A stretch of DNA of 64,000 nt. Source: Haloarchaeobius salinus. GTDB lineage: Archaea; Halobacteriota; Halobacteria; Halobacteriales; Natrialbaceae. The stretch is taken from assembly GCF_024464185.1 (NCBI RefSeq), contig NZ_JANHAU010000005.1:124001-188000 (forward strand), written 5' to 3'. The notes beneath the pieces were generated by a model. The model was not told the DNA's origin. It did not search any database and saw only the letters and a program-made list of their open reading frames with translations. Below, piece by piece: positions 15,803 to 28,230 of the stretch (within the stretch, counting starts at the first letter, position 1; the number at the start of each line of letters is the position of its first letter). A program made the translations under genes and the position numbers.

Positions 15803-16669
15803 CTACTGTGTGACTGTGCCAGCGAACAGACTCAGCTCTGGGTCGGAGCCCTTTCGAGCCATAACGACGGTGTTCTGTGCCTGCTCACGGATTTCGGTCA
15901 CCTTCGAACCAAATATCAATCGTCGTAATTTCCCCTTTTGTGGTGCCCCGATGACCGTCAAATCGTGATAGGCGGATTCCTCGATTATCTCCGACGTGAC
16001 ACCGTTGCCATCGATGATGCGGGTATCTACCTCGATAGTATCAGAGATCTGTACTGCTCCTGCTTCGAGAAGCTCCTCTGCTTCTGCTCGTTTCAGTCCA
16101 GAGTTGTCCGTCTCGAGGATGTGCACGAGTTCGATCCACGCATCGTTGGCTGCGGCGAGAGAACTGGCGACGTTCACAGCGGCTCCGGAGTGTGGACCCC
16201 CGGCAATTGGAACGAGTATCGATGCAATCGATTCAGGTGAGGATCGTCCATTGACGACGACTGTATCGCAACCTGTGCGCTTGGCGATTTGTGCTTCGAT
16301 GCGCTCCGATGCATCGTCTCCCATTACGATAATGTTGATGTGGAATGTAGCTGCTGCCGTAGCAACTGTCTCGATGGGACTCGGCCCTGTGAGGGGTAGG
16401 CCGAGCACATCCACGTCGATCGAAGTGCTATCCCGGGCACGAAGAACCGTCTCGGCCACGTCACGAGTTGTTTCGTACGACGCAGTGCCGGTCCCGGTCT
16501 CGATCTCACCGATAAGTAGCTGGGTGTCTAGAGATGTCGCAATCGCCCCCGCGATACTGAGAACGGTGTCGGACTCCCGCTGAAAAAACGGGTACAGCGT
16601 TCGCGTCCTCGACGCACTCTTCGGATCACCATCCAACGGCCGGTCCTGCTCGTCTGGTGGGTCACTCAT
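15803..16669 (-). CDS. Universal stress protein (two-domain UspA)
   Basis: A 288-residue protein with two UspA-like units, each about 140 residues. The first contains INIIVMGDDASERIEAQIAK and the second LTVIGAPQKGKLRRLIFGSK, which correspond to the G-rich nucleotide-binding loop of the UspA fold. It is transcribed divergently from the Trk K+ operon. The codon composition is noticeably more A/T-rich than in the surrounding genes, and it sits next to an IS relic, so it may have been acquired. A role in controlling K+ transport is plausible from position only. Confidence 0.82.
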   Translation of the reverse strand: MSDPPDEQDRPLDGDPKSASRTRTLYPFFQRESDTVLSIAGAIATSLDTQLLIGEIETGTGTASYETTRDVAETVLRARDSTSIDVDVLGLPLTGPSPIETVATAAATFHINIIVMGDDASERIEAQIAKRTGCDTVVVNGRSSPESIASILVPIAGGPHSGAAVNVASSLAAANDAWIELVHILETDNSGLKRAEAEELLEAGAVQISDTIEVDTRIIDGNGVTSEIIEESAYHDLTVIGAPQKGKLRRLIFGSKVTEIREQAQNTVVMARKGSDPELSLFAGTVTQ

Positions 16670-16923
16670 TTCCTACCTATTTTTGCTTTGAGCATTTAGT
16701 ACTATCTCTGTTCATAGGAGCGCAATATTTGGTTCATATATTCTTCATCCACCAGAACAGACAGTTCAGAAACACATAGGTTAAGTCACTCCGGAATTCA
16801 CACCGAGACAGACTGATGATCTGCAGTCTTCGTTCCACCAGCACGGTCGACTCACCTGTCCCGGATCCGTTCGGTCGACGACCAATCCCACGTCACGCCC
16901 CCCCACGACAGGTGTAGCTCGAT

Positions 16924-17607
16924 ATGTACATCATCATCGTCGGTGCGGGCGACATCGGAACACCGCTGATCGACATCGCGACTCGGTCCGGGAACGAGGT
17001 CGTCGTCATCGAGCGTGATCCCGATAAGGCCGACCGCGTCGCGAACCAATATGACTGCCTCGTCCTCAACGCCGACGCGACGACGAAGGAGACGATCAGC
17101 GACGCCGGCGGCGAGCAGGCCGACGCGATTATCTCGACGACGGACCAGGACGCGACGAACATCATGGTGTGTCTCCTAGCTCAGGAGTTCGATATCCCCG
17201 CCATCCTTTCCGTCGTCCACAACCCCGAGCACATGGGGCTGTTCCGCCAGATCGGTGTGAACACGATGCAGAACCCACAGCAACTCATCGCGGAGTACCT
17301 CTACCGTGCCGTTGCACGACCAGCGATCGTTGATTTCATGCGAATCGGTGAGGAGGCGGAGGTGTTCGAAATCGAGGTGACGCCGGAGGCCCCGATTACA
17401 GGGAAGTCGCTGAACGAAGCCGCCGCCTCCGGACTGCTCGACGACGACATGCTCGTCGTAGCGATCGAACGGAACGGCGAAGGACACCCGATAACCCCAC
17501 GAGGGAACACCGAGATCGAGGCTGGTGATATCCTCACCGTGTACTCGGGTGTCGGGGCCGATCCAGAGATAACCGACATCTTCGGCCACCACGAGGACCG
17601 GACGTGA
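16924..17607 (+). CDS. trkA: Trk potassium uptake regulatory subunit TrkA (RCK)
   Basis: A 227-residue cytoplasmic gating protein. It has an RCK_N domain with the NAD-binding motif IIVGAGDIGTPL (residues 4-15) and the acidic ribose-binding end of strand 2 (VVVIERDPDKA). An RCK_C (TrkA_C) domain is at about 140-222, including EVTPEAPITGKSLNEA. It gates TrkH in response to nucleotides. The promoter region upstream contains ATAGGTTAAG near 16780. It is the first gene of the operon. Confidence 0.93.
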   Translation: MYIIIVGAGDIGTPLIDIATRSGNEVVVIERDPDKADRVANQYDCLVLNADATTKETISDAGGEQADAIISTTDQDATNIMVCLLAQEFDIPAILSVVHNPEHMGLFRQIGVNTMQNPQQLIAEYLYRAVARPAIVDFMRIGEEAEVFEIEVTPEAPITGKSLNEAAASGLLDDDMLVVAIERNGEGHPITPRGNTEIEAGDILTVYSGVGADPEITDIFGHHEDRT

Positions 17608-17668
17608 TGGTGACTGACGCCCACCCGTATCGAGCCGGACGAACGACCCCATACCATGTGTTCAGGAC

Positions 17669-19228
17669 ATGAACGCGTCGTACGCACCGGTTGGTCGTGA
17701 CGTCGGCCGCATGCTGCAAGCGCTCGCAGGACTGGTACTGATCACGATCCCCGTCTCGCTGGTCTGGGGGGAGTACTACGTGCTGCCAGCGCTCCTGCTG
17801 TCCGCACTCGTCCCGCTCGCGAGTGGCCGACTCCTCACGTCCGCGTTTCAGGACGCATCGGACCCGGGAAAACTCCACGGGATGATGGTCGCAGCGGCAG
17901 GCTGGTTCTCCGTCGCACTGTTCGGCTCGCTGCCGTTACTCCTGATCGCCTGGACCATTGCGCTCGATCCGGTGTACTTGGACGCCCCAGCGCTCAACGG
18001 ACGGGCCGCGTCGACGGTCGGAGCGTTCAGAAACCCGCTCAATGCGGTGTTCGAGTCGATGAGCGGGTTCACCGGGACCGGACTCACGATGACCGACGAC
18101 GAGTCGGCACTGCCGCGGACGCTACAGTGGTGGCGAACGTTCATCGAATGGATCGGCGGTGTCGGCGTCATCGTCCTGACGACCGCGATCCTCGCCCGAC
18201 CGGGGAGCGGTTCGCTGACATTGTACGAGAGCGAAGCCCGGTCCGAGAAGATCCACCCGAGTATCGTCTCGACGGTCCGGACCATCTGGTGGATCTTCCT
18301 GCTGTTCACCTTCGTCTCGATACTCGTCCTTTGGCTGGCGGGGATGCCGCTCTGGGGCGCGATCAACCACGCGATGACCGGGCTCGCCACCGGTGGGTTC
18401 TCCATCACGGACAACTCCATCGCGACGTACGACAGCGCCGTGATCGACTTCGCGCTGATCCCCGTGATGATCCTCGGTAGTATCGCCTTCCCCATCCACT
18501 ATCTGATACTGCAGGGTGACCTGAAGAACCTCTACACCGACCTCCAGACGCGATGGATGTTCGGCTTCTTCGGGGCTGGCTCATTGCTGCTCTCGGCGAT
18601 GGTGTATACCAGTGGGACCTACGACTCCTGGTTCGACGCCGTGCGGTACGGGCTGTTCCAGTTCGTCTCTGCGATGTCCTGTACCGGGTTCCAGACCGCG
18701 GTCGACTCGACGAACGTCGCCCTCGGAAAGTGGCCTGCCCAGGCACAGTTGACTGTCACATTCGGTATGGTCGTCGGGGCAGCCGCTGGCTCCACCGTGG
18801 GTGGCATCAAACTCATCCGACTCGCGACACTCGTGAAGGGAATCCGTCACCGGATCACGGACGTTTTCGTCCCCGATACGGCGGTCCGTCGGCTCCAGAT
18901 CGACGACAGGCGGCTCACCGAGGAAGAGGCGAACCGCGAGTTGGGTGAGGCAGCCATCATCTCGGTTCTCTGGTTCGTGTTCCTCGCCCTCACGACGTTC
19001 GTGCTCCTGCTGGTGCTGCCCGAGAACCAGTACACGCTGGAGAACGTCGTCTTCGAGGTCGCGAGCGCCCAGGGTAACGTCGGCCTTTCGTCCGGCATCA
19101 CCGGTCCGGGGATGCCGACAGTCGGGAAGCTCTTCTTCCTGTTCAACATGTGGATCGGTCGGCTGGAGATTATTCCCGTCCTCGTACTGCTCAGGGCGTT
19201 GTTCACCCGTGGAGGACTGTACCGATGA
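17669..19228 (+). CDS. trkH: Trk/Ktr potassium transporter pore subunit TrkH
   Basis: A 519-residue membrane protein of the TrkH/KtrB superfamily with four repeated M1-P-M2 units. The pore-loop glycines are visible in SMSGFTGTGLT, TGLATGGFSI, SAMSCTGFQTA and SAQGNVGLSSG, so all four selectivity-filter segments are present. It works with TrkA to import K+, which haloarchaea accumulate to molar levels. The stop overlaps the next start by 4 nt (ATGA), so the 72-residue protein is translationally coupled. Confidence 0.95.
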   Translation: MNASYAPVGRDVGRMLQALAGLVLITIPVSLVWGEYYVLPALLLSALVPLASGRLLTSAFQDASDPGKLHGMMVAAAGWFSVALFGSLPLLLIAWTIALDPVYLDAPALNGRAASTVGAFRNPLNAVFESMSGFTGTGLTMTDDESALPRTLQWWRTFIEWIGGVGVIVLTTAILARPGSGSLTLYESEARSEKIHPSIVSTVRTIWWIFLLFTFVSILVLWLAGMPLWGAINHAMTGLATGGFSITDNSIATYDSAVIDFALIPVMILGSIAFPIHYLILQGDLKNLYTDLQTRWMFGFFGAGSLLLSAMVYTSGTYDSWFDAVRYGLFQFVSAMSCTGFQTAVDSTNVALGKWPAQAQLTVTFGMVVGAAAGSTVGGIKLIRLATLVKGIRHRITDVFVPDTAVRRLQIDDRRLTEEEANRELGEAAIISVLWFVFLALTTFVLLLVLPENQYTLENVVFEVASAQGNVGLSSGITGPGMPTVGKLFFLFNMWIGRLEIIPVLVLLRALFTRGGLYR

Positions 19229-19443
19229 GACTCGACGAACTCCCCCTGGTCCGCTACGTCTTCGAGTCCGGCCCGGACGATCCCGTGTTCGATGCGCTCC
19301 TCCTCAGTGGCCCGCTGCTCATCGGGATACTCGCCATCGTCGGCCGGTCGCCGATTTCGGTCGGACTCGCCGTACTGTACCTGCTCGTGTTCGCTGGCTA
19401 TCTCCCGTACAACTGGTTCAGGAACCGAAGACAGGAACGGTGA
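19225..19443 (+). CDS. Small two-helix membrane protein in the Trk operon
   Basis: A 72-residue protein whose ATG overlaps the trkH stop by 4 nt. It has two hydrophobic segments (about residues 25-39 and 46-62) followed by a basic tail RNRRQER, so both ends probably sit in the cytoplasm. I recognise no family. Its strict coupling to trkH suggests an accessory or stabilising subunit of the transporter. Confidence 0.75.
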   Translation: MRLDELPLVRYVFESGPDDPVFDALLLSGPLLIGILAIVGRSPISVGLAVLYLLVFAGYLPYNWFRNRRQER

Positions 19444-19482
19444 ACAGAAATGGTTTGGCAGCACGGACCCTACGGGTACGAC

Positions 19483-20232
19483 ATGGACTACCGGCTAGAT
19501 GAAATCGACAAGCGAATCCTCTATCATCTGGCTCTCGAGGCACGTGACACCTCTGCGCCCGACATCGCTGAGGAAGTGAACGTGTCAGCGGGGACAATCC
19601 GTAACCGGATCAACCAGTTAGAGGAGCAGGGAATCATCAGAGGCTACCACGCCGATATCGACTACGAAAGGGCGGAAGGGATGCTCACGAACCGGTTCAA
19701 GTGTACGAGTGCGGCAGCTGATCGAACCAAACTCGCGAAGCAGATCCTCCAGATTCCAGGGGTCGTGAACATCCGTGAGATCATGACCGGGAAGGCCGAT
19801 CTGGAGATCAAAGCCGTCGGGAGCGACACCAGAGATCTCACACGGATCGGGGATGCGATCCTCGAACTGGGCGTGGAGATCGAGGACCAGGACATCATCA
19901 AGCGCGAGCACTTCCGGCCGTATCGGCCGTACGGTCCGGCCGAGACGCGGCACTCCCCGTCGATAACTGATTTCATGAGTCTCGCCGGCGACGCCGAGGT
20001 CGTCGAACTCACGGTACGTGAGGGTGCCCCGATTACGGGAACCACGCTTCGAGAGGCGAACTCCGATGGGCTCCTGGAGGAGGGCCTGCTCGTCGTCGCG
20101 CTCGAACGCGACGGTGAGGTCCTCACGCCACACGGTGAAACGAAGCTCGAGCCGGGCGATCTCATCACCATCTTCGTCCACAACGGCCAGAGCGGCCAGG
20201 TCGAATCAGTGTTCGCGCCGCAGGAGGCCTGA
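19483..20232 (+). CDS. Lrp/AsnC regulator fused to an RCK_C (TrkA_C) domain
   Basis: About 249 residues from the ATG at 19483 (an ATG at 19450 would add 11). The N-terminus is an Lrp-type HTH (DEIDKRILYHLALEARD, then VSAGTIRNRINQLEEQGIIR), and an RAM-like segment follows. The C-terminal about 80 residues form an RCK_C domain (ELTVREGAPITGTTLREA, LEPGDLITIFV) that closely parallels that of TrkA in the same operon. The fusion suggests that the regulator reads the same ligand as the transporter gate and adjusts trk transcription. The ligand is not known from sequence. Confidence 0.88.
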   Translation: MDYRLDEIDKRILYHLALEARDTSAPDIAEEVNVSAGTIRNRINQLEEQGIIRGYHADIDYERAEGMLTNRFKCTSAAADRTKLAKQILQIPGVVNIREIMTGKADLEIKAVGSDTRDLTRIGDAILELGVEIEDQDIIKREHFRPYRPYGPAETRHSPSITDFMSLAGDAEVVELTVREGAPITGTTLREANSDGLLEEGLLVVALERDGEVLTPHGETKLEPGDLITIFVHNGQSGQVESVFAPQEA

Positions 20233-20348
20233 CGAAACATCGCTCACCGGGGCTCCGGATTGTGAGGTTTCGGCCCAACCGGGAGAGCGTGTCATCCATC
20301 CGCAGATAGTTCGCACCCCGAATGGCGATTGCGAACATTACGGAAAGT

Positions 20349-20390
20349 CACGGGGGGAGCCCCGTGCTTTTACGTGGGGATGGATCCCAC
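20349..20390 (+). repeat. Hairpin resembling an IS200/IS605-type right end
   Basis: A perfect 7-bp stem, CACGGGG-GGAG-CCCCGTG at 20349-20366, is followed by CTTTTACGTGGGGATGG. This arrangement resembles the tnpB-distal ends (sotRNA or omega-RNA region) of haloarchaeal IS1341/IS605-group elements. There is no tnpB frame beside it, so it would be a relic. The resemblance is from memory. Confidence 0.4.
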
Positions 20391-20570
20391 AACTCCCCGG
20401 CAAGCAACGGTCACCGCGCTGACCGGATGTGTCGATTAGTGTCGTTTCGTACTGAGCTGTAAGTACCTCTGAATCCCATGCTGGGAGAGGAGTAACGGCT
20501 GGTTGGTACAACCAGTAGTCGTCTCCCGAGGCGGCTACGATTCCGAAACATCTCAACTCAGCGGTGCGGT

Positions 20571-20610
20571 CCCGTGGGAATCCTCACCCTTCAGCACGTG
20601 GAGGACGTCA
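20571..20610 (-). repeat. Second IS605/IS1341-like end fragment
   Basis: On the minus strand this reads GACGTCCTCCACGTGCTGAA then GGGTGAGGATTCCC, similar to the sequence that borders many haloarchaeal IS1341-group genes. It lies about 200 nt from the hairpin at 20349 and in the opposite orientation, with no transposase between. It is probably part of the same or a nested relic. Confidence 0.35.
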
Positions 20611-20826
20611 CCCCCCGCTCGACATCGTTCGAGACGAACCAGGATCCGAAGTTCGGGTCCATCTTCACCATTGCGTATCCTGTTCCCCCTCGTTCGACAG
20701 CAGGTGCGTCTCATCGAGGGGCATCGCCACCCCCAGATCCGCTCGCTTCGAACCCAGCATCTGAGAAGGGACGGAGGTCAGCCGTGGGACCGCCGAGTGC
20801 TCTCGGGGAACGGGACACACCACCGT

Positions 20827-21468
20827 TCAGAAGCGTCGGTCCTCGACGACGCTGCGCACGAGGCCGGCGAGGCGCTCACGGAGCGGCCGGACGATGGGGT
20901 TCGGCTGGCTGCCGAGGTACGCGGTCATCGGGTCGTACTCACCGGTCTCGAGCAGGTGGAGGAGAACGGCCGTCACGCGGTGGTTCCCGTCGAGTATCCT
21001 GGTCTGTGCTCGCCCACGTCGGGTGAGCAACACCGGCGCGGGCACCGACTCCCCGGCGGCCACTCGCTCCCGGTCGGCGAGGATGTGCTCGACGTCGACG
21101 CCGGTCTCCGCGGCGAGCGTCGCGGGCGGTTCCTGCTGGATTCGTCGAGCGCCATCGAGCACGCGACGGTCGTCTGCGAGGCCGCCCCACAGCGAATCGG
21201 CGGGCCCGTCGATGTAGCGGAGTCGCCGGAGCTCGGCTTCCCGGAGCTGGAGTCGATACCACCGGGGCGCTGGGTCGGCGTGGAAGATGGCCGCCGCGCC
21301 CGGTTTCCTCGCGAGCAGTGCCTCGTGGGCCTCGCGCGTCGAGAGCTCGTCGATCCGGTCGGCATCGAGGTTGTCGTCGCGCTTGTCCGCCTCCAGGGCG
21401 AGCCAGTGGTCGATGACCGTCCGTCGTGGGACCCGTTCGAGCCCGTCGGGCGTGGACAGGCCCCTCAT
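20827..21468 (-). CDS. ParB/sulfiredoxin-fold-like protein
   Basis: A 213-residue protein. Near residues 158-175 it carries RILDGNHRVTAVLLHLLETG, which matches the DGNHR-type motif of the ParB-like nuclease/Srx fold. The rest is charged, with no membrane segments. The ATG at 21468 overlaps the stop of the pentapeptide gene by 4 nt, which fixes the start and implies translational coupling. In this fold the motif binds nucleotide or CTP, or phosphorylated substrate. I do not assign a function. It is the last gene of a three-gene operon. Confidence 0.7.
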   Translation of the reverse strand: MRGLSTPDGLERVPRRTVIDHWLALEADKRDDNLDADRIDELSTREAHEALLARKPGAAAIFHADPAPRWYRLQLREAELRRLRYIDGPADSLWGGLADDRRVLDGARRIQQEPPATLAAETGVDVEHILADRERVAAGESVPAPVLLTRRGRAQTRILDGNHRVTAVLLHLLETGEYDPMTAYLGSQPNPIVRPLRERLAGLVRSVVEDRRF

Positions 21469-23291
21469 CGGTGGACCGACCGCGTGAGTGTGAACACGAA
21501 CAGTGCGACGAAGAACGCCCCGATGAAGCCCTCGAGCGCGGAGAACACCCGGAGGCCGAACGAGTCCACGCCGGGGACCGGTGGGGTGCCGATGATGAAC
21601 GAGATGAAGCTCTGGAAGCTGAAGAGGACGTACTCGCGGAACGGGACACCCGCGCTTCCAGGGGCGAGACCGGCCGCATACAGCACTGCGAACCCGAGGC
21701 ACAGGCCGGCCGACGACAGCACCACCCTGCTCGGGCGCTCGCCGTAGCCGGTCGTCGCGCCCATCGTCAGGTTGGCCACCCACCGCCAGAGGCCGGTCCA
21801 GCCACGACGGCGTGGCAACGCACGGAGGCGCTCGCCGTGGCTCAGCCGTCGATACCCCATCTCCTTGCGGAAGAACTCGCCCGCCGCCCGGGTGTCGCCC
21901 GCCGCGGTCGCCCCGCGCTTGGCGCGGAGGTAGGTGTTCTCGATGCCGGCCATTCCGAGTGCTGCGTCCGTCGTATCGCTCCAGAGCCCGAGCCACCGGC
22001 CGACCGCTGCGCGGAGCCCACCGTCGCGGCCGTAGCCGTGGATCCGCCAGTCGACCGCTTCGAAGGCGTCGCGGTGGCCGGCGACGTCGAAGTCGTCGAA
22101 CTCGGTCCGGAAGAGCCGCAGGTGGTCCAGTCGGGGGCCGGGTTCGTCGCTCCCGACGAGGTCGACGTCGCCGAGCACCCCCTTGGTGAGGTCGGCACGA
22201 CTGTCCGTCAGTCGGAGTTCGCCGCCGTCGAGCCTGCTTCGGGAGAGATCGACCGGCGTGGCCGCTGCGGCCGGTGCGAGCCTGATATCGTCGAACCGGG
22301 CGTCGCGTGCGTGTGCCTCGTCGGCGAAGCTCGTGTCGACGAGCGTCGTGAGTCCACGACCGGCGGCCTCGTCGAGGTTCGCGACCGCGGTGAACTGTGC
22401 GCCGTGGAAGTTCGCGCTCTGCTCGAACTGGGCCTTGGCGAAGGTGGCGTAGCGACGGTCTTTCTCCGCTCCTCCGGGTGAGCCGTCGGCTTCGTCACCG
22501 AACCGGGCGCGTGTGAATCGTGCCTTGCTCTCGAAGCGACTCCGATAGAAGGAGACGTTCCGGCGGAAGCCAGCGCCGACGAACGTGGCCGTCTCACCGA
22601 ACCGCGCGCTGCGAAACGACGCGTCGCCGCGCACGGTCGCGAACCGCATCGAGAACATGCTGTCGGGGATCGTGGTCCCAGAGAGGTCGAGCCCGCCGTG
22701 GACGACCGCGAATCGGAGGTCGATCGGGACCGTCACGGAGGCGGTCAGTTCCCGGTTCGACAGGTCGAGCGTTCCGAAGCGCGCACCGTCGAGCGCCCGG
22801 TCGGCGGGGTCGTCCGATTCGATGGCCGCCACGAGCGCATCCCGGACCCGTTCGTCGTCCTTCTCGTCCGGGGGGAGGTGGAACAGACAGCGGTCGTCAC
22901 GGACCGCCTCGTGCGGGCATGCACTCGCAGGGTCGTCGGTTGCCGCATCGGCCAGCATGTTCACCTCGCGCCACGCGGTCTCGACCTCGTCCCAGGTGAA
23001 CCCGAGCGTCTCGGCGTCGTACCGCTGGCAGAGCGTCCATGCGGGCGTCCATCGGAGTCGTGCGGGCGACTCGTCGAGGCGCTCGCCGAGGCGCTCCAGT
23101 GCGGCCGTCCGGCCGCGGTTGGTCCGGACCTGGTTGACGCCGGATTCGGCGCGAAAGCGCAGGAACATGTGCATCGACCACTCGCGCAGGCTCGCCTCCA
23201 CGCGGGCCTGCCACGCCGGCGAGGCGTAGTACGTGCACTGACTGTCCATGGAGCGTTCACCACCGTTCGGGGCTTCAATCTCCCGGCTCAT
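21465..23291 (-). CDS. Pentapeptide-repeat protein with C-terminal two-TM channel-like domain
   Basis: A 608-residue protein. Residues about 15-130 form a helical N-domain ending in a Cys/His cluster (CPHEAVRDDRCLFH). Residues about 165-370 show pentapeptide-like A(D/N)LxX repeats, such as ASFRSARFGETATFVGAGF and RATFAKAQFEQSANFHGAQF patterns. The C-terminus (about 510-608) has two hydrophobic helices flanking FQSFISFIIGTPPVPG, the position of a channel pore loop, but without the TVGYGD filter. The start is supported by a 4-nt overlap with the upstream glycosyltransferase stop. Confidence 0.8.
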   Translation of the reverse strand: MSREIEAPNGGERSMDSQCTYYASPAWQARVEASLREWSMHMFLRFRAESGVNQVRTNRGRTAALERLGERLDESPARLRWTPAWTLCQRYDAETLGFTWDEVETAWREVNMLADAATDDPASACPHEAVRDDRCLFHLPPDEKDDERVRDALVAAIESDDPADRALDGARFGTLDLSNRELTASVTVPIDLRFAVVHGGLDLSGTTIPDSMFSMRFATVRGDASFRSARFGETATFVGAGFRRNVSFYRSRFESKARFTRARFGDEADGSPGGAEKDRRYATFAKAQFEQSANFHGAQFTAVANLDEAAGRGLTTLVDTSFADEAHARDARFDDIRLAPAAAATPVDLSRSRLDGGELRLTDSRADLTKGVLGDVDLVGSDEPGPRLDHLRLFRTEFDDFDVAGHRDAFEAVDWRIHGYGRDGGLRAAVGRWLGLWSDTTDAALGMAGIENTYLRAKRGATAAGDTRAAGEFFRKEMGYRRLSHGERLRALPRRRGWTGLWRWVANLTMGATTGYGERPSRVVLSSAGLCLGFAVLYAAGLAPGSAGVPFREYVLFSFQSFISFIIGTPPVPGVDSFGLRVFSALEGFIGAFFVALFVFTLTRSVHR

Positions 23292-24352
23292 CGATCCAGG
23301 ACGCGCGAGCGGAGGAACGCCCGCAGCCCGGTGGTCGTCGCGGTGTACGACGGCTGTCGCGCGGCCGTGTCCGCGGCGGCCGTCCCCAGGCGCACGAGCA
23401 GCTCTCGGTCGTCGGCCAGCCGGGCGAGGCGCTCCCGGAGCGTGTCCGGGTCGTCGGGTGAGACGAGATAGCCGTTCTCGCCGTCGACGACGACGTCACC
23501 GGCACCCCCGGCCGCAGACGCGATGACGGGGAGGCCGAACCCCATCGCTTCGAGGTAGACGATGCCGAACCCCTCGTGCCGGGACGGGACCGCCAACAGG
23601 TGTGCGGCTGCCAGTCGGTCGGCCAGGTCGGCGTCCGGGAGGAACCCGGTGAACGTCACTCGGTCGTCGATGCCCGCCGCCGTCACCTGCCGCTGGAGAC
23701 GCTCCGCGTAGTCGGGAGCGGCGTCCAGAGCGCCGACGACCGTCAGCTCACAGTCCGGCACTGCCGCCACCGCGTCGATCAGCCCGTGGACGTTCTTCCG
23801 TGGGACGACGCTCCCGACCGCGACGATCCGAAGCGGCCCGTCGATCGCGCGTCGCTCGATCACCGTCGGGGCAGGAGTGGTCCGGTCGTCGAAGCGGTCG
23901 CCGGCCGGTTGCCCGACGTGCAACGGCCCGTCGTAGCCGTGCGCTCGAACCGTCCTGGCCGTGTCGTGACTGGTCGTCACCACGGCGTCGACGCTGCGGA
24001 GATACGCCCGTTCGACGGCACTGTACCACCGCTGTCGGAGCGGTGACCACCGCTCGCTCGCCCGGAGGTGATGGACGATGGAGACGATGGGCGTCTCGCT
24101 GTCGACCCGTCGATTCCAGCCGACGAGCGTCGGATGTGCGAGTTCGTCCTGCAGCACGACGTCGTACCGCTCGAGGTCGGGCGGCGTCCCCCGGAGGCCG
24201 GCCCACAGGCCGCGATGGTAGTCGTACCACGGGAGCTCGTGGACGGTGACCGTCTCACCGGCCGCCCGCAGCTCCTCGACCAGCCGTCGGTCGTACCTGA
24301 ACCCCCCTGTCGTCGTGTCGAGCTCGCCGTAGAGTACCAGCCCCAGCTGCAT
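23288..24352 (-). CDS. GT4-type glycosyltransferase (GT-B fold)
   Basis: A 354-residue glycosyltransferase of group 1 (GT4). The C-terminal domain has the nucleotide-sugar-binding region (VAVGSVVPRKNVHGLIDAV) and the EX7E motif in SRHEGFGIVYLEAMGFG. There are no membrane helices, so it is cytosolic or peripheral. It is the first gene of a tightly overlapping operon with the pentapeptide/channel protein and the ParB-like protein. The acceptor is unknown. Confidence 0.92.
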   Translation of the reverse strand: MQLGLVLYGELDTTTGGFRYDRRLVEELRAAGETVTVHELPWYDYHRGLWAGLRGTPPDLERYDVVLQDELAHPTLVGWNRRVDSETPIVSIVHHLRASERWSPLRQRWYSAVERAYLRSVDAVVTTSHDTARTVRAHGYDGPLHVGQPAGDRFDDRTTPAPTVIERRAIDGPLRIVAVGSVVPRKNVHGLIDAVAAVPDCELTVVGALDAAPDYAERLQRQVTAAGIDDRVTFTGFLPDADLADRLAAAHLLAVPSRHEGFGIVYLEAMGFGLPVIASAAGGAGDVVVDGENGYLVSPDDPDTLRERLARLADDRELLVRLGTAAADTAARQPSYTATTTGLRAFLRSRVLDR

Positions 24353-24598
24353 TCACCGGGTGTTCGCAGTGCGGGGGTTTGAATGCACGCACGTATCATA
24401 CTCACCCGGTAGTGACCACTCACTGCCGGGCGCACTCGCGGTCGACGCGGACGACCGCACCGTCCCACGTCCTTCGTCGGCATTCACACCACGCAACTCC
24501 CCCGGCAACCGGTGGAACCGTGATTTGGGATCTCACGCTGCTGCGCTGTCGGCTGTTCTGGATTCCGGATCGAGACAGTCACGTCTGATGTCTCGAAT

Positions 24599-26088
24599 TC
24601 AAAGGCCGTCATCGCTCGCTGTCGCCCCGACGCCAGTTTCGTCGAGGTCGACTTCGGGTTCGGTCAGGCCACTCCCGCGCCACGTTCCGCGGCGGTACCA
24701 GACGTACGCGATGGTCGCTCCGACGACGTTCGAGACAGCGAAGGACAGCCAGACGCCCGTTTCACCGAGCGTGCCCGCAGTGACCCACGCGATCGGGAAT
24801 CGGATGACACCGAGCGTCAGCACGGATATCGCGGCCGCAGTGAGCGTCTTCCCGGCACCGCGGAAGCTCCCCGTGTATGCCCGCATGATACCCATGAACC
24901 CGAACGTTAGCGCGACGTAACGGATGAACTCGGCTCCGATGCTGATCACATCGGCAGCGTTCGTCTGGTCGGCACCGACGAACACCGAGACGATGGGCTC
25001 CGGGAACACGAAGGCGACGACGCCACCGACGCTGAGGACACCGAAGAGGACTTTCGCAGCCAGCCCTGCTGCTCGTTCGGCGCGGTCCGGTTTGTCGGCA
25101 CCGATGTTCTGGCCCGTCATCGTTTCGACGCCACGGGCGACGGCGAGTGCGGGGAGGAAGGCGACCGAGAAGACACGGGTCCCGATGCCGTACGCGGCGA
25201 CGACGGTGTCCGGGAACATCGCGACGATGACCAGCAGAAGGTTCATCGACACTGCTCGTCCGGTACCTTCGACGGACGCCGGAAGACCGATGCGAACGAG
25301 TCGGCGGAGATAGGAGAGGTCGGGGACCATGTCGTGGAGGCGGATCTGGACGCCACGGTTCCCACGGAACATGATAGCCAGGCCGACGACCAGTGCTATC
25401 GCGCGCGAGAAGATCGTCGCGATGGCGGCCCCTTGGATGCCGAGTTCGGGGAACGCGACTGTGCCCACGAGGGGTGCGTTCTCGACGACCGTCCAGCCGA
25501 AGATGAGGAACGGGTCGATGATGATGTTGAGAACGACAGAGCCGAACATCACGATCATCGGTGTGATCGTGTCGCCGTACCCGCGCATGAGCGCGACGAA
25601 GACGGCGAAGCCGAACATGAACAGCAGGCCCAGTGAGATGACTTCCATGTAGCTCGTCGCGAGCGGCTGGACGTCCTGAGAGACACCCATCACACCGAGG
25701 AACGTGTCGACGCCGACGTAGCCGATGGCACCGAGGACGACGGAGGCGATGACAGCGAAGGTCACCGTCTGCGAGGCGGCGTACTCGGCCTCGCGTTCCT
25801 CACCCGCACCCGTGAACTGGGCGACGAGGACGCTGCCCGCGACGGAGATCCCCATCCCGAGCGAGATGAGCAGGAAGACCATCGGAACGCGAAGCTAATC
25901 GCAGCCAGGGCGTCCGTGCTGTACTGGCCGAGCCAGAACGTATCAGCCAGGTTGTACGCCGTCTGAAGGAGGTTCGTCACGACGATCGGCATCGAGAGGA
26001 AGAACAGTGGCTTCCCGATGCTGCCCGACGTCAGGTCGAACTCCTCGGGACCCCTGAACAACGCGGAGATGCGGCTTCGCAGCCCCAT
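24599..26088 (-). pseudogene. MATE-family multidrug exporter, frameshifted
   Basis: The N-terminal part (from the ATG at 26088; PLFFLSMPIVVTNLLQTAYN and LADTFWLGQYSTDALAAISF) and the remaining 427 residues (from 25882; MVFLLISLGMGISVAGSV onward) lie in different frames. In the family these join as AISFAFPMVFLL. Here the joint reads TTCCGATG where TTCCCGATG would keep frame, so one C is missing at 25883-25885. The rest is intact, with 12 helices in total. It overlaps the TetR stop by 1 nt, so it was probably the regulated transporter. This may be a real inactivation or a sequencing error. Confidence 0.85.
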
Positions 26089-27222: not shown

Positions 27223-28230
27223 TCATAGCGTCAGCTTCTCACGTCCAAGATCATCTCCTCGTTCGAAGTTGGTAATTACAACGACGAGTCGGAGACACAG
27301 CGCAAGGAATACTTCTGTTCGTGCGTGGACGTGGCCTCGGGCGCGGACGTGCCCGAGGCCGCAGTCCTTGACTGCGTCGTTGGTTCGTTCGACTCCTGTC
27401 CGGTTATTGTACGTCTCGTCCAAGATAGATTGTTCCAGCTGAACGTCCTCGCTGTGTTCCTCAATTCGGTCTTCGATCCTGTACTCGATGTCTTTCGGGT
27501 CGTCAGTGTTTCGCGGGTTGTATGTGGCGATTGGCACGACGCCTGCGACCAGCAGGCGGTCGTGCAATTCGAGGATGTCGTAGGCACTGTCTCCAAGCAT
27601 CCAGATGGGTGTATCGACGGCGAGCGCGTCACGCGTGACGCGCATCGCCGTCTCCTGATCCGCTTGCTTGGCCTGTGTGAACTCCGCTGCAATCGGTATC
27701 TTTGCACCGGTCGAGACAATCGTACAGCCGAAGCCGTAGTAGTACTCTTCAGCCGTTGGATCGTAGTTCCATGACGCCGCGTCGTTGTACTGGATCGGCT
27801 CAACGTGTGTCGAATCGATAGAGTACGTCGAGTCGAGCAGGCCGCGGGCGGCGGCCTGCTCGACGAGCCTGTCGAAGACATCGTCGATAACGTGTTCGAG
27901 GTCGGTGAGAAACCGGTCAATCGTGTCTCTGGATGGCGGTTTGTCGAGTCCACAGTAGTACCAAACGAGACCGTTCTGGAGTTCTCGTGCAACCGGACGC
28001 GTTCCGTAGATGTCCTTGTAATAGCAGTGCAGAAAGCCGCAAAAGAGGTCTGGTGGCTGATGGACTCGTGTTCGCCCCCGCCTTGAGGGGGCGAACACGT
28101 CGTACTCCAGCAGAAACTCGAACTCAAGGTGCTCAAACAGCGGTACTGTCTCGGTGGCCGCGACATTCAAGAAGTCGTCTACCGAAGCTACGTCTTGCAG
28201 GGCGTTGGTACTGCTGGACACAGTTTCCAA
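27223..28230 (-). CDS. IS4/IS5-type DDE transposase
   Basis: A 335-residue transposase. The first catalytic Asp is in STYSIDSTHVE (D139), the second in WMLGDSAYDIL (D214), and the Glu is E281 within Y274-N-N-R277-T-G-V-E281, giving the Y(2)R(3)E(6)K signature of the IS4/IS5 superfamily. No internal stop or frameshift is visible, so it could still be active. The likely start codon is TTG at 28230, or a GTG three codons later. A 16-nt palindrome lies 8 nt upstream of the start. Confidence 0.9.
   Translation of the reverse strand: METVSSSTNALQDVASVDDFLNVAATETVPLFEHLEFEFLLEYDVFAPSRRGRTRVHQPPDLFCGFLHCYYKDIYGTRPVARELQNGLVWYYCGLDKPPSRDTIDRFLTDLEHVIDDVFDRLVEQAAARGLLDSTYSIDSTHVEPIQYNDAASWNYDPTAEEYYYGFGCTIVSTGAKIPIAAEFTQAKQADQETAMRVTRDALAVDTPIWMLGDSAYDILELHDRLLVAGVVPIATYNPRNTDDPKDIEYRIEDRIEEHSEDVQLEQSILDETYNNRTGVERTNDAVKDCGLGHVRARGHVHARTEVFLALCLRLVVVITNFERGDDLGREKLTL

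What the first reader, a model, noticed from the sequence alone, without database searches (positions are those of the whole stretch)
20827..24352. Three-gene overlapping operon: GT4 glycosyltransferase, pentapeptide-repeat/two-TM channel-like protein, ParB-like protein
All three genes overlap by 4 nt, so their products should be made together. The combination of a cytosolic glycosyltransferase, a long pentapeptide-repeat protein with a Cys/His cluster and a two-TM pore-like C-terminus, and a small DGNHR (ParB/sulfiredoxin-fold) protein does not correspond to a pathway I know. A membrane-effector or surface-glycan module are both possible. It sits next to IS-type relics.
Basis: partly seen in the sequence, partly recalled or inferred. 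Interest (0 to 1): 0.65.

Follow-up and report, generated by a model that had tools for sequence, protein, structure and literature searches.

The report
Reshuffled operon with filter-less channel gene
In one salt-loving archaeon, two leftover genes of a widespread but uncharacterised gene cluster that probably makes a GTP-derived sugar compound have been joined with a gene for a membrane protein built like a potassium channel without its potassium filter; the exact trio was seen nowhere else, so it is a local rearrangement rather than a conserved machine.

Summary
The three overlapping genes are real. They lie on the minus strand (GT4 24352-23288, pentapeptide/2TM 23291-21465, ParB-like 21468-20827), with both overlaps ATGA. 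The trio is not a conserved module: no second instance was found in 342 genomes of the order. The GT4 and ParB-like genes instead descend from a conserved haloarchaeal cluster: Zn-dehydrogenase, PTPS-like enzyme, GT4, methyltransferase, often ParB-like protein and GTP cyclohydrolase III. Of 139 genomes with this GT4, 138 also carry the cluster's PTPS; the exception is this genome, which also lacks its methyltransferase and dehydrogenase. The pentapeptide gene sits where some relatives have the methyltransferase. A similar dehydrogenase-PTPS-GT4-methyltransferase row, with GTP cyclohydrolase II, creatininase and RibD-type reductase, occurs on a Streptomyces plasmid, which suggests a GTP-derived glycoside of unknown identity. 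The ParB-like protein has the sulfiredoxin/ParB fold, without recognisable DNA-binding domains. The pentapeptide protein is a solenoid plus TM1-pore helix-TM2; its whole subfamily has lost the TxGYG potassium filter, and its best Foldseek match is HalA, an anti-phage ion channel. The operon has about 70% GC (flanks 60-65%) and is absent from congeners, so it was probably acquired horizontally. Joint function is unproven.

The parts
23288..24352 (-). GT4 glycosyltransferase (354 aa), intact E-x7-E (E260, E268) and K186; orthologue of the PTPS-linked haloarchaeal GT4
21465..23291 (-). pentapeptide-repeat solenoid protein (608 aa) with N-terminal CPH..CxFH cluster and C-terminal TM1-pore helix-TM2 whose potassium filter is degenerate (SFISFIIGTPP)
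20827..21468 (-). ParB/sulfiredoxin-fold protein (213 aa) with DGNHR; often encoded in or beside the ADH-PTPS-GT4-MT cluster in other haloarchaea
23288..23291 (-). ATGA overlap GT4/pentapeptide gene
21465..21468 (-). ATGA overlap pentapeptide/ParB-like gene
20344..24598 (.). segment between the collinear left flank (TrkH/Lrp-TrkA) and the MATE gene; high-GC, absent from the matching place in three congeners

Best explanation
The locus is a strain-specific, probably horizontally acquired high-GC operon. It was assembled from two genes (GT4 and ParB/Srx-fold protein) of a conserved haloarchaeal cluster (Zn-ADH, PTPS-like, GT4, SAM methyltransferase, ParB/Srx, often GTP cyclohydrolase III) and an unrelated pentapeptide-repeat 2TM membrane protein that occupies the methyltransferase's slot. 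Shown: gene content, overlaps, orthology, absence of cluster PTPS, methyltransferase and ADH from the genome, predicted folds, and loss of the TxGYG filter across the subfamily. Inferred: the parent cluster makes a GTP-derived (pteridine- or pyrimidine-type) glycoside; the GT4 transfers a sugar to a small cytosolic acceptor; the ParB/Srx protein is a nucleotide-binding enzyme or switch, not a partition protein; the pentapeptide protein is a tetrameric membrane protein whose solenoid couples to a pore that is not K+ selective, or no longer a pore. The three are co-translated, but a shared function is not demonstrated; I think it likelier that this is a reshuffled remnant than a dedicated three-part pathway.
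For: GT4 genomes carry the cluster PTPS in 138 of 139 cases, the exception being G000; methyltransferase genomes carry PTPS in 179 of 179. ADH, PTPS and MT absent from G000; its single PF01242 match lies elsewhere (C2) and was not hit by the cluster PTPS query. Cluster order seen in L061, L063-L068, L071, L072, L119, L121-L124, L126-L130, L132, L134, some without ADH or ParB, and annotated on Haladaptatus and Haloarcula plasmids. In L061, L063, L064 and L066 the order is GT-MT-ParB; here GT-Penta-ParB. Collinear ADH-PTPS-GT4-MT with GCH II, creatininase and RibD_C on a Streptomyces plasmid. All three genes 70-71% GC versus 57-66% for the flanking genes tested; left flank collinear in congeners, which lack the operon. 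Folds. Window copy keeps all invariant residues of the GT4 and ParB alignments.
Against: GT4 and ParB are intact and keep their conserved residues, and coupling to the pentapeptide gene is exact, which is more than a decaying remnant needs; this could be a functional new combination. GT4 sequence is not specifically closest to pterin glucosyltransferases. No paper held in the library characterises the parent cluster, so its product is inferred from gene families only. The genome is in 17 contigs, so a missing gene could in principle lie in a gap.
Confidence: 0.62

Rival explanations
1. Membrane-effector module: the pentapeptide 2TM protein is a HalA-like gated channel that kills or arrests the cell; the GT4 and ParB/Srx proteins make, modify or sense the nucleotide or sugar ligand that holds it closed.
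For: Best Foldseek match of the model is HalA (9nyi, E 2.5e-5) followed by KirBac/NaK channels; the paper PMC13275509 describes HalA as an ion channel blocked by poly-dA adducts of HalB; the ParB fold binds nucleotides in general (PMC12704722); translational coupling; strain-specific island-like locus.
Against: No nucleotidyltransferase or convincing defence hit among the neighbours; the trio occurs nowhere else; GT4 and ParB belong to a biosynthetic neighbourhood elsewhere; the channel filter is lost.
Confidence: 0.13
2. Working variant of the parent pathway: GT4 and ParB still make the glycoside from a pteridine supplied by other genes, and the pentapeptide membrane protein exports or senses it.
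For: Catalytic motifs kept; GTP cyclohydrolase III and another PF01242 protein are present in the genome; solved pterin glucosyltransferases are GT4 enzymes matching this protein (5ze7, E 8.8e-15).
Against: Every other genome with this GT4 keeps the dedicated PTPS; window GT4 sits on a long branch, 1.13 versus median 0.43; the GT4 family profile is closer to sucrose-phosphate synthase and MshA than to pterin glucosyltransferases.
Confidence: 0.15
3. Surface-glycan or protein-glycosylation module.
For: GT4 family membership.
Against: No flippase, oligosaccharyltransferase or sugar-nucleotide gene was identified among the flanking proteins scanned; orthologues lie beside PTPS and GTP cyclohydrolase genes.
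Confidence: 0.05

Closest known systems
Haloarchaeal Zn-ADH / PTPS-like / GT4 / methyltransferase cluster (e.g. Haladaptatus caseinilyticus plasmid OOF89_RS15125-15145)
   Same: GT4 and ParB-like genes are orthologous; GT4/MT coupling in the Haladaptatus plasmid resembles the coupling here
   Different: PTPS, ADH and methyltransferase are gone here and a pentapeptide membrane gene stands in the methyltransferase slot
Actinobacterial cluster with PTPS homologue (Streptomyces globisporus plasmid; PTPS family's best solved relative is SCO6650, 3d7j)
   Same: ADH-PTPS-GT4-MT order
   Different: adds GTP cyclohydrolase II, creatininase and RibD_C; no ParB-like or pentapeptide gene found
HalA of the Hailong anti-phage system (PDB 9nyi)
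   Same: pentapeptide solenoid together with a channel region; top Foldseek hit
   Different: no HalB-type partner seen; potassium filter degenerate; 608 aa versus 371 aa with an extra N-terminal region
Pentapeptide-repeat Ion_trans_2 proteins of haloarchaea (e.g. L083, L088, L091, L099)
   Same: same N-terminal Cys/His cluster in most, same solenoid, helical linker and TM-pore-TM C-terminus
   Different: those keep T-(V/I/L/A)-G-(Y/F)-G; this protein's subgroup does not
Sulfiredoxin / SerK / SbnI branch of the ParB fold
   Same: single ParB-fold domain with G-x-x-R-type motif (GNHR), no HTH
   Different: extra helical insert; substrate unknown; no significant sequence match to solved members

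Membership tests
GT4 glycosyltransferase | Glycos_transf_1 domain with E-x7-E motif | tested here: met
   PF00534 E 5.9e-39; E260, E268 and K186 invariant in 32 homologues
Haloarchaeal ADH-PTPS-GT4-MT cluster | GT4 of this clade | tested here: met
   groups with the PTPS-linked GT4s, far from paralogues of its own genome
Haloarchaeal ADH-PTPS-GT4-MT cluster | cluster PTPS, methyltransferase and ADH in the genome | tested here: not met
   none found in G000; no trace in the window
ParB/sulfiredoxin fold | fold | tested here: met
   model pLDDT 90; the top VIA rows are sulfiredoxin, ParB, Noc, SerK and SbnI, Z 4 to 6.2
ParB partition protein | HTH and C-terminal dimerisation domains, ParA partner | tested here: not met
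   213 aa; the model ends in one C-terminal helix after the fold and no Pfam domain is found; no ParA-like gene identified beside it
SerK-type small-molecule kinase | catalytic Glu (E30 in SerK) and phosphorylation of a small substrate | not tested
   no residue-level structural alignment available
2TM K+ channel | TM1-pore helix-TM2 | tested here: met
2TM K+ channel | TxGYG selectivity filter / Ion_trans_2 hit | tested here: not met
   filter region reads SFISFIIGTPP; Ion_trans_2 matches 6 of 15 family members and not this one
2TM K+ channel | tetramer that conducts ions | not testable with these tools
   no multimer prediction or assay
Hailong (HalA/HalB) | pentapeptide plus channel effector architecture | tested here: met
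   HalA 9nyi is the top Foldseek hit, E 2.5e-5
Hailong (HalA/HalB) | adjacent HalB nucleotidyltransferase | tested here: not met
   neighbours are GT4, ParB-fold, MATE, TetR, TrkH, Lrp-TrkA

The most novel reading that the evidence does not exclude
A new kind of membrane effector: a pentapeptide-solenoid pseudo-channel without a potassium filter, controlled by a small glycosylated or nucleotide-derived ligand that the co-translated GT4 and ParB/Srx-fold enzymes make or sense.
Probability: 0.08. Interest if true: 0.75.

Novelty: new variant of a known kind. Interest (0 to 1): 0.4.

Why it matters
The trio itself looks like a one-off rearrangement. It exposes two things worth following: a conserved but seemingly uncharacterised cluster (Zn-ADH, PTPS-like, GT4, methyltransferase, often next to a GTP cyclohydrolase) shared by haloarchaea and actinobacteria, which likely makes a GTP-derived glycoside; and a haloarchaeal pentapeptide-channel family in which a whole subgroup has lost the potassium filter.

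Tried and rejected
Conserved three-gene module: rejected, no second instance. Defence island: PADLOC gives no hit for the three proteins and only weak wHTH-type similarity for the neighbouring Lrp-TrkA protein. GT4 as a recognisable pterin glucosyltransferase: solved tetrahydrobiopterin glucosyltransferases match at E 8.8e-15 in a single-sequence search, but the family profile ranks sucrose-phosphate synthase, MshA and mannosyltransferases first, so acceptor identity is not supported by sequence. ParB family profile against PDB sequences: nothing significant. Degenerate-filter C-terminus alone against PDB sequences: nothing. Sigma-70-type promoter scan: uninformative for an archaeon. Searches for phosphohalopterin and sulfohalopterin in the paper library: no hits; papers on the COG0720 family and on Hailong are not held. 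Literature on SCO6650/SCO6655: only a metabolic-model paper.

Full report
Observation. The three genes are real, intact and on the minus strand: GT4 24352-23288 (354 aa), pentapeptide protein 23291-21465 (608 aa), ParB-like protein 21468-20827 (213 aa). Each junction is ATGA, a 4-nt overlap. Base composition by codon position is coding-like in all three and nearly identical between them (GC 0.70-0.71, GC3 0.86-0.87), while the flanking genes tested have 0.57-0.66.

The trio is not a conserved unit. Homologues of the ParB-like protein occur in 59 of 342 genomes of the order, GT4 orthologues in 139, and pentapeptide relatives at E<=1e-30 in 23. In the 40 neighbourhoods first examined, pentapeptide relatives were never near GT4 or ParB orthologues, and the coordinates show no further case. 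A scan of GTDB 220 with the pentapeptide protein, which reaches close relatives only, gave two loci at 35 and 44% identity; their neighbours were not read.

GT4 and ParB belong to another neighbourhood. Around them lies a repeated cluster: Zn-dehydrogenase (PF00107), PTPS-like protein (PF01242, E 9.6e-26), GT4, SAM methyltransferase, often the ParB-like protein, and in some loci GTP cyclohydrolase III (PF05165, E 6.8e-90). Counting over 342 genomes: of 139 with this GT4, 138 have the cluster PTPS, and 179 of 179 genomes with the methyltransferase have it; ParB-like proteins co-occur more loosely (44 of 59 with GT4, 47 of 59 with PTPS). The one GT4 genome without the PTPS is the window's own, which also lacks the methyltransferase and dehydrogenase but keeps GTP cyclohydrolase III on another contig and one other PF01242 protein, presumably the ordinary QueD-type enzyme (that identity is inference). 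In L061, L063, L064 and L066 the order is GT4-MT-ParB; here the pentapeptide gene takes the MT slot. On a Haladaptatus plasmid the annotated order is ParB-like, zinc alcohol dehydrogenase, '6-carboxytetrahydropterin synthase', GT4, methyltransferase.

What the parent cluster does. All 29 PTPS-like proteins aligned have Glu (E26) four residues before the first His of the HSH zinc motif, where the PTPS/QueD family has its catalytic Cys (the comparison with known active sites is from general knowledge). Their best solved relative is SCO6650 of Streptomyces (3d7j, E 3.1e-17), then QueD. A Streptomyces globisporus plasmid holds dehydrogenase, PTPS, GT4 and a methyltransferase in the same order, followed by RibD_C, creatininase and GTP cyclohydrolase II; an Arthrobacter plasmid holds dehydrogenase, PTPS and GT4. 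GTP cyclohydrolase plus RibD_C plus creatininase points to a pathway from GTP through formylaminopyrimidine-type intermediates; PTPS, GT4 and MT then suggest a glycosylated, methylated product. That product is an inference: the GT4 family profile does not rank pterin glucosyltransferases first, and no paper held here describes the cluster. From memory only, haloarchaea and Sulfolobus contain modified pterins, and a Streptomyces GTP cyclohydrolase II paralogue near SCO6650 stops at the formylaminopyrimidine stage; these are leads, not tests.

Window GT4. It groups with the cluster GT4s and far from paralogues of its own genome, on a long branch (1.13 against a median of 0.43) and without strong support for its exact place. 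It keeps every invariant residue.

ParB-like protein. AlphaFold2 with 31 homologues gave pLDDT 90. Foldseek matches are weak (best E 0.055), but the VIA-align list is headed by sulfiredoxin, ParB, Noc, SerK and SbnI, Z 4 to 6.2. Z under 8 is middling; the case rests on the consistency of the list and the invariant DGN(HR) motif. There is no HTH or dimerisation domain, which resembles the sulfiredoxin/SerK type. A recent survey (PMC12704722) describes the ParB fold as a versatile nucleotide-binding module and SerK, SbnI and Srx as members without the DNA-binding parts.

Pentapeptide protein. The family-wide N-terminal CP(H/R)...CxFH cluster is present; residues 170-380 form a pentapeptide solenoid (HetL 3du1 Z 19.9), followed by helices, TM1 520-542, a pore-type helix 551-567 and TM2 578-607 (mean pLDDT 73, so detail is uncertain). 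Pfam Ion_trans_2 matches 6 of 15 family members, those with a T-x-G-(Y/F)-G filter; the window protein and seven relatives form a subgroup where this reads SFhxhhLG instead, yet the two groups align over 111 columns with P 99.5% and E 1.7e-22. Canonical members match K+ channels in PDB. The best Foldseek hit of the whole model is HalA (9nyi, E 2.5e-5), then inward rectifier and NaK channels. So it works like, or derives from, a solenoid-gated 2TM channel, but it fails the potassium-filter test.

Surroundings. The left flank, window 15819-20343, is collinear at 75-89% identity in three congeners, after which collinearity stops; the operon's GT4 and ParB are absent from the three congeners covered (G003-G005), and the MATE/TetR flank matches a different place in G004. 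With the GC contrast this suggests horizontal acquisition. The nearest recognised transposase is at 27223-28230. The MATE gene appears frameshifted near 25885, so the region shows some decay.

Conclusion. The locus is best read as a reshuffled, horizontally acquired operon: two leftovers of a widespread, apparently uncharacterised GTP-derived glycoside cluster fused in expression to a filter-less channel-like protein. A dedicated membrane-effector system is possible but has no comparative support.

Noticed in passing
L147 (Streptomyces globisporus plasmid NZ_CP108665.1) 5641-12897; L144 (Arthrobacter plasmid): Zn-ADH, PTPS, GT4 (and in Streptomyces a methyltransferase) in the same order as in haloarchaea, with RibD_C, creatininase and GTP cyclohydrolase II in L147: a possible cross-domain biosynthetic cluster of unknown product.
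   Followed up: partly
window 24599-26088: The MATE efflux gene is split by a frameshift near 25885 (two overlapping ORFs continuing one protein): pseudogene or sequencing error.
   Followed up: partly
L083, L088, L090 upstream of the pentapeptide channel gene: Canonical-filter pentapeptide channels share a conserved neighbourhood with a multi-TM protein and two further small proteins; the function of this operon was not examined.
   Followed up: no
L095, L096, L098: Relatives of the pentapeptide protein with the pore loop missing or only a single C-terminal TM: stepwise loss of the channel within one family.
   Followed up: no
window 19450-20232: Lrp/AsnC-type wHTH fused to a TrkA_C domain next to TrkH, conserved in congeners: a potassium-uptake regulator directly beside the operon.
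   Followed up: no
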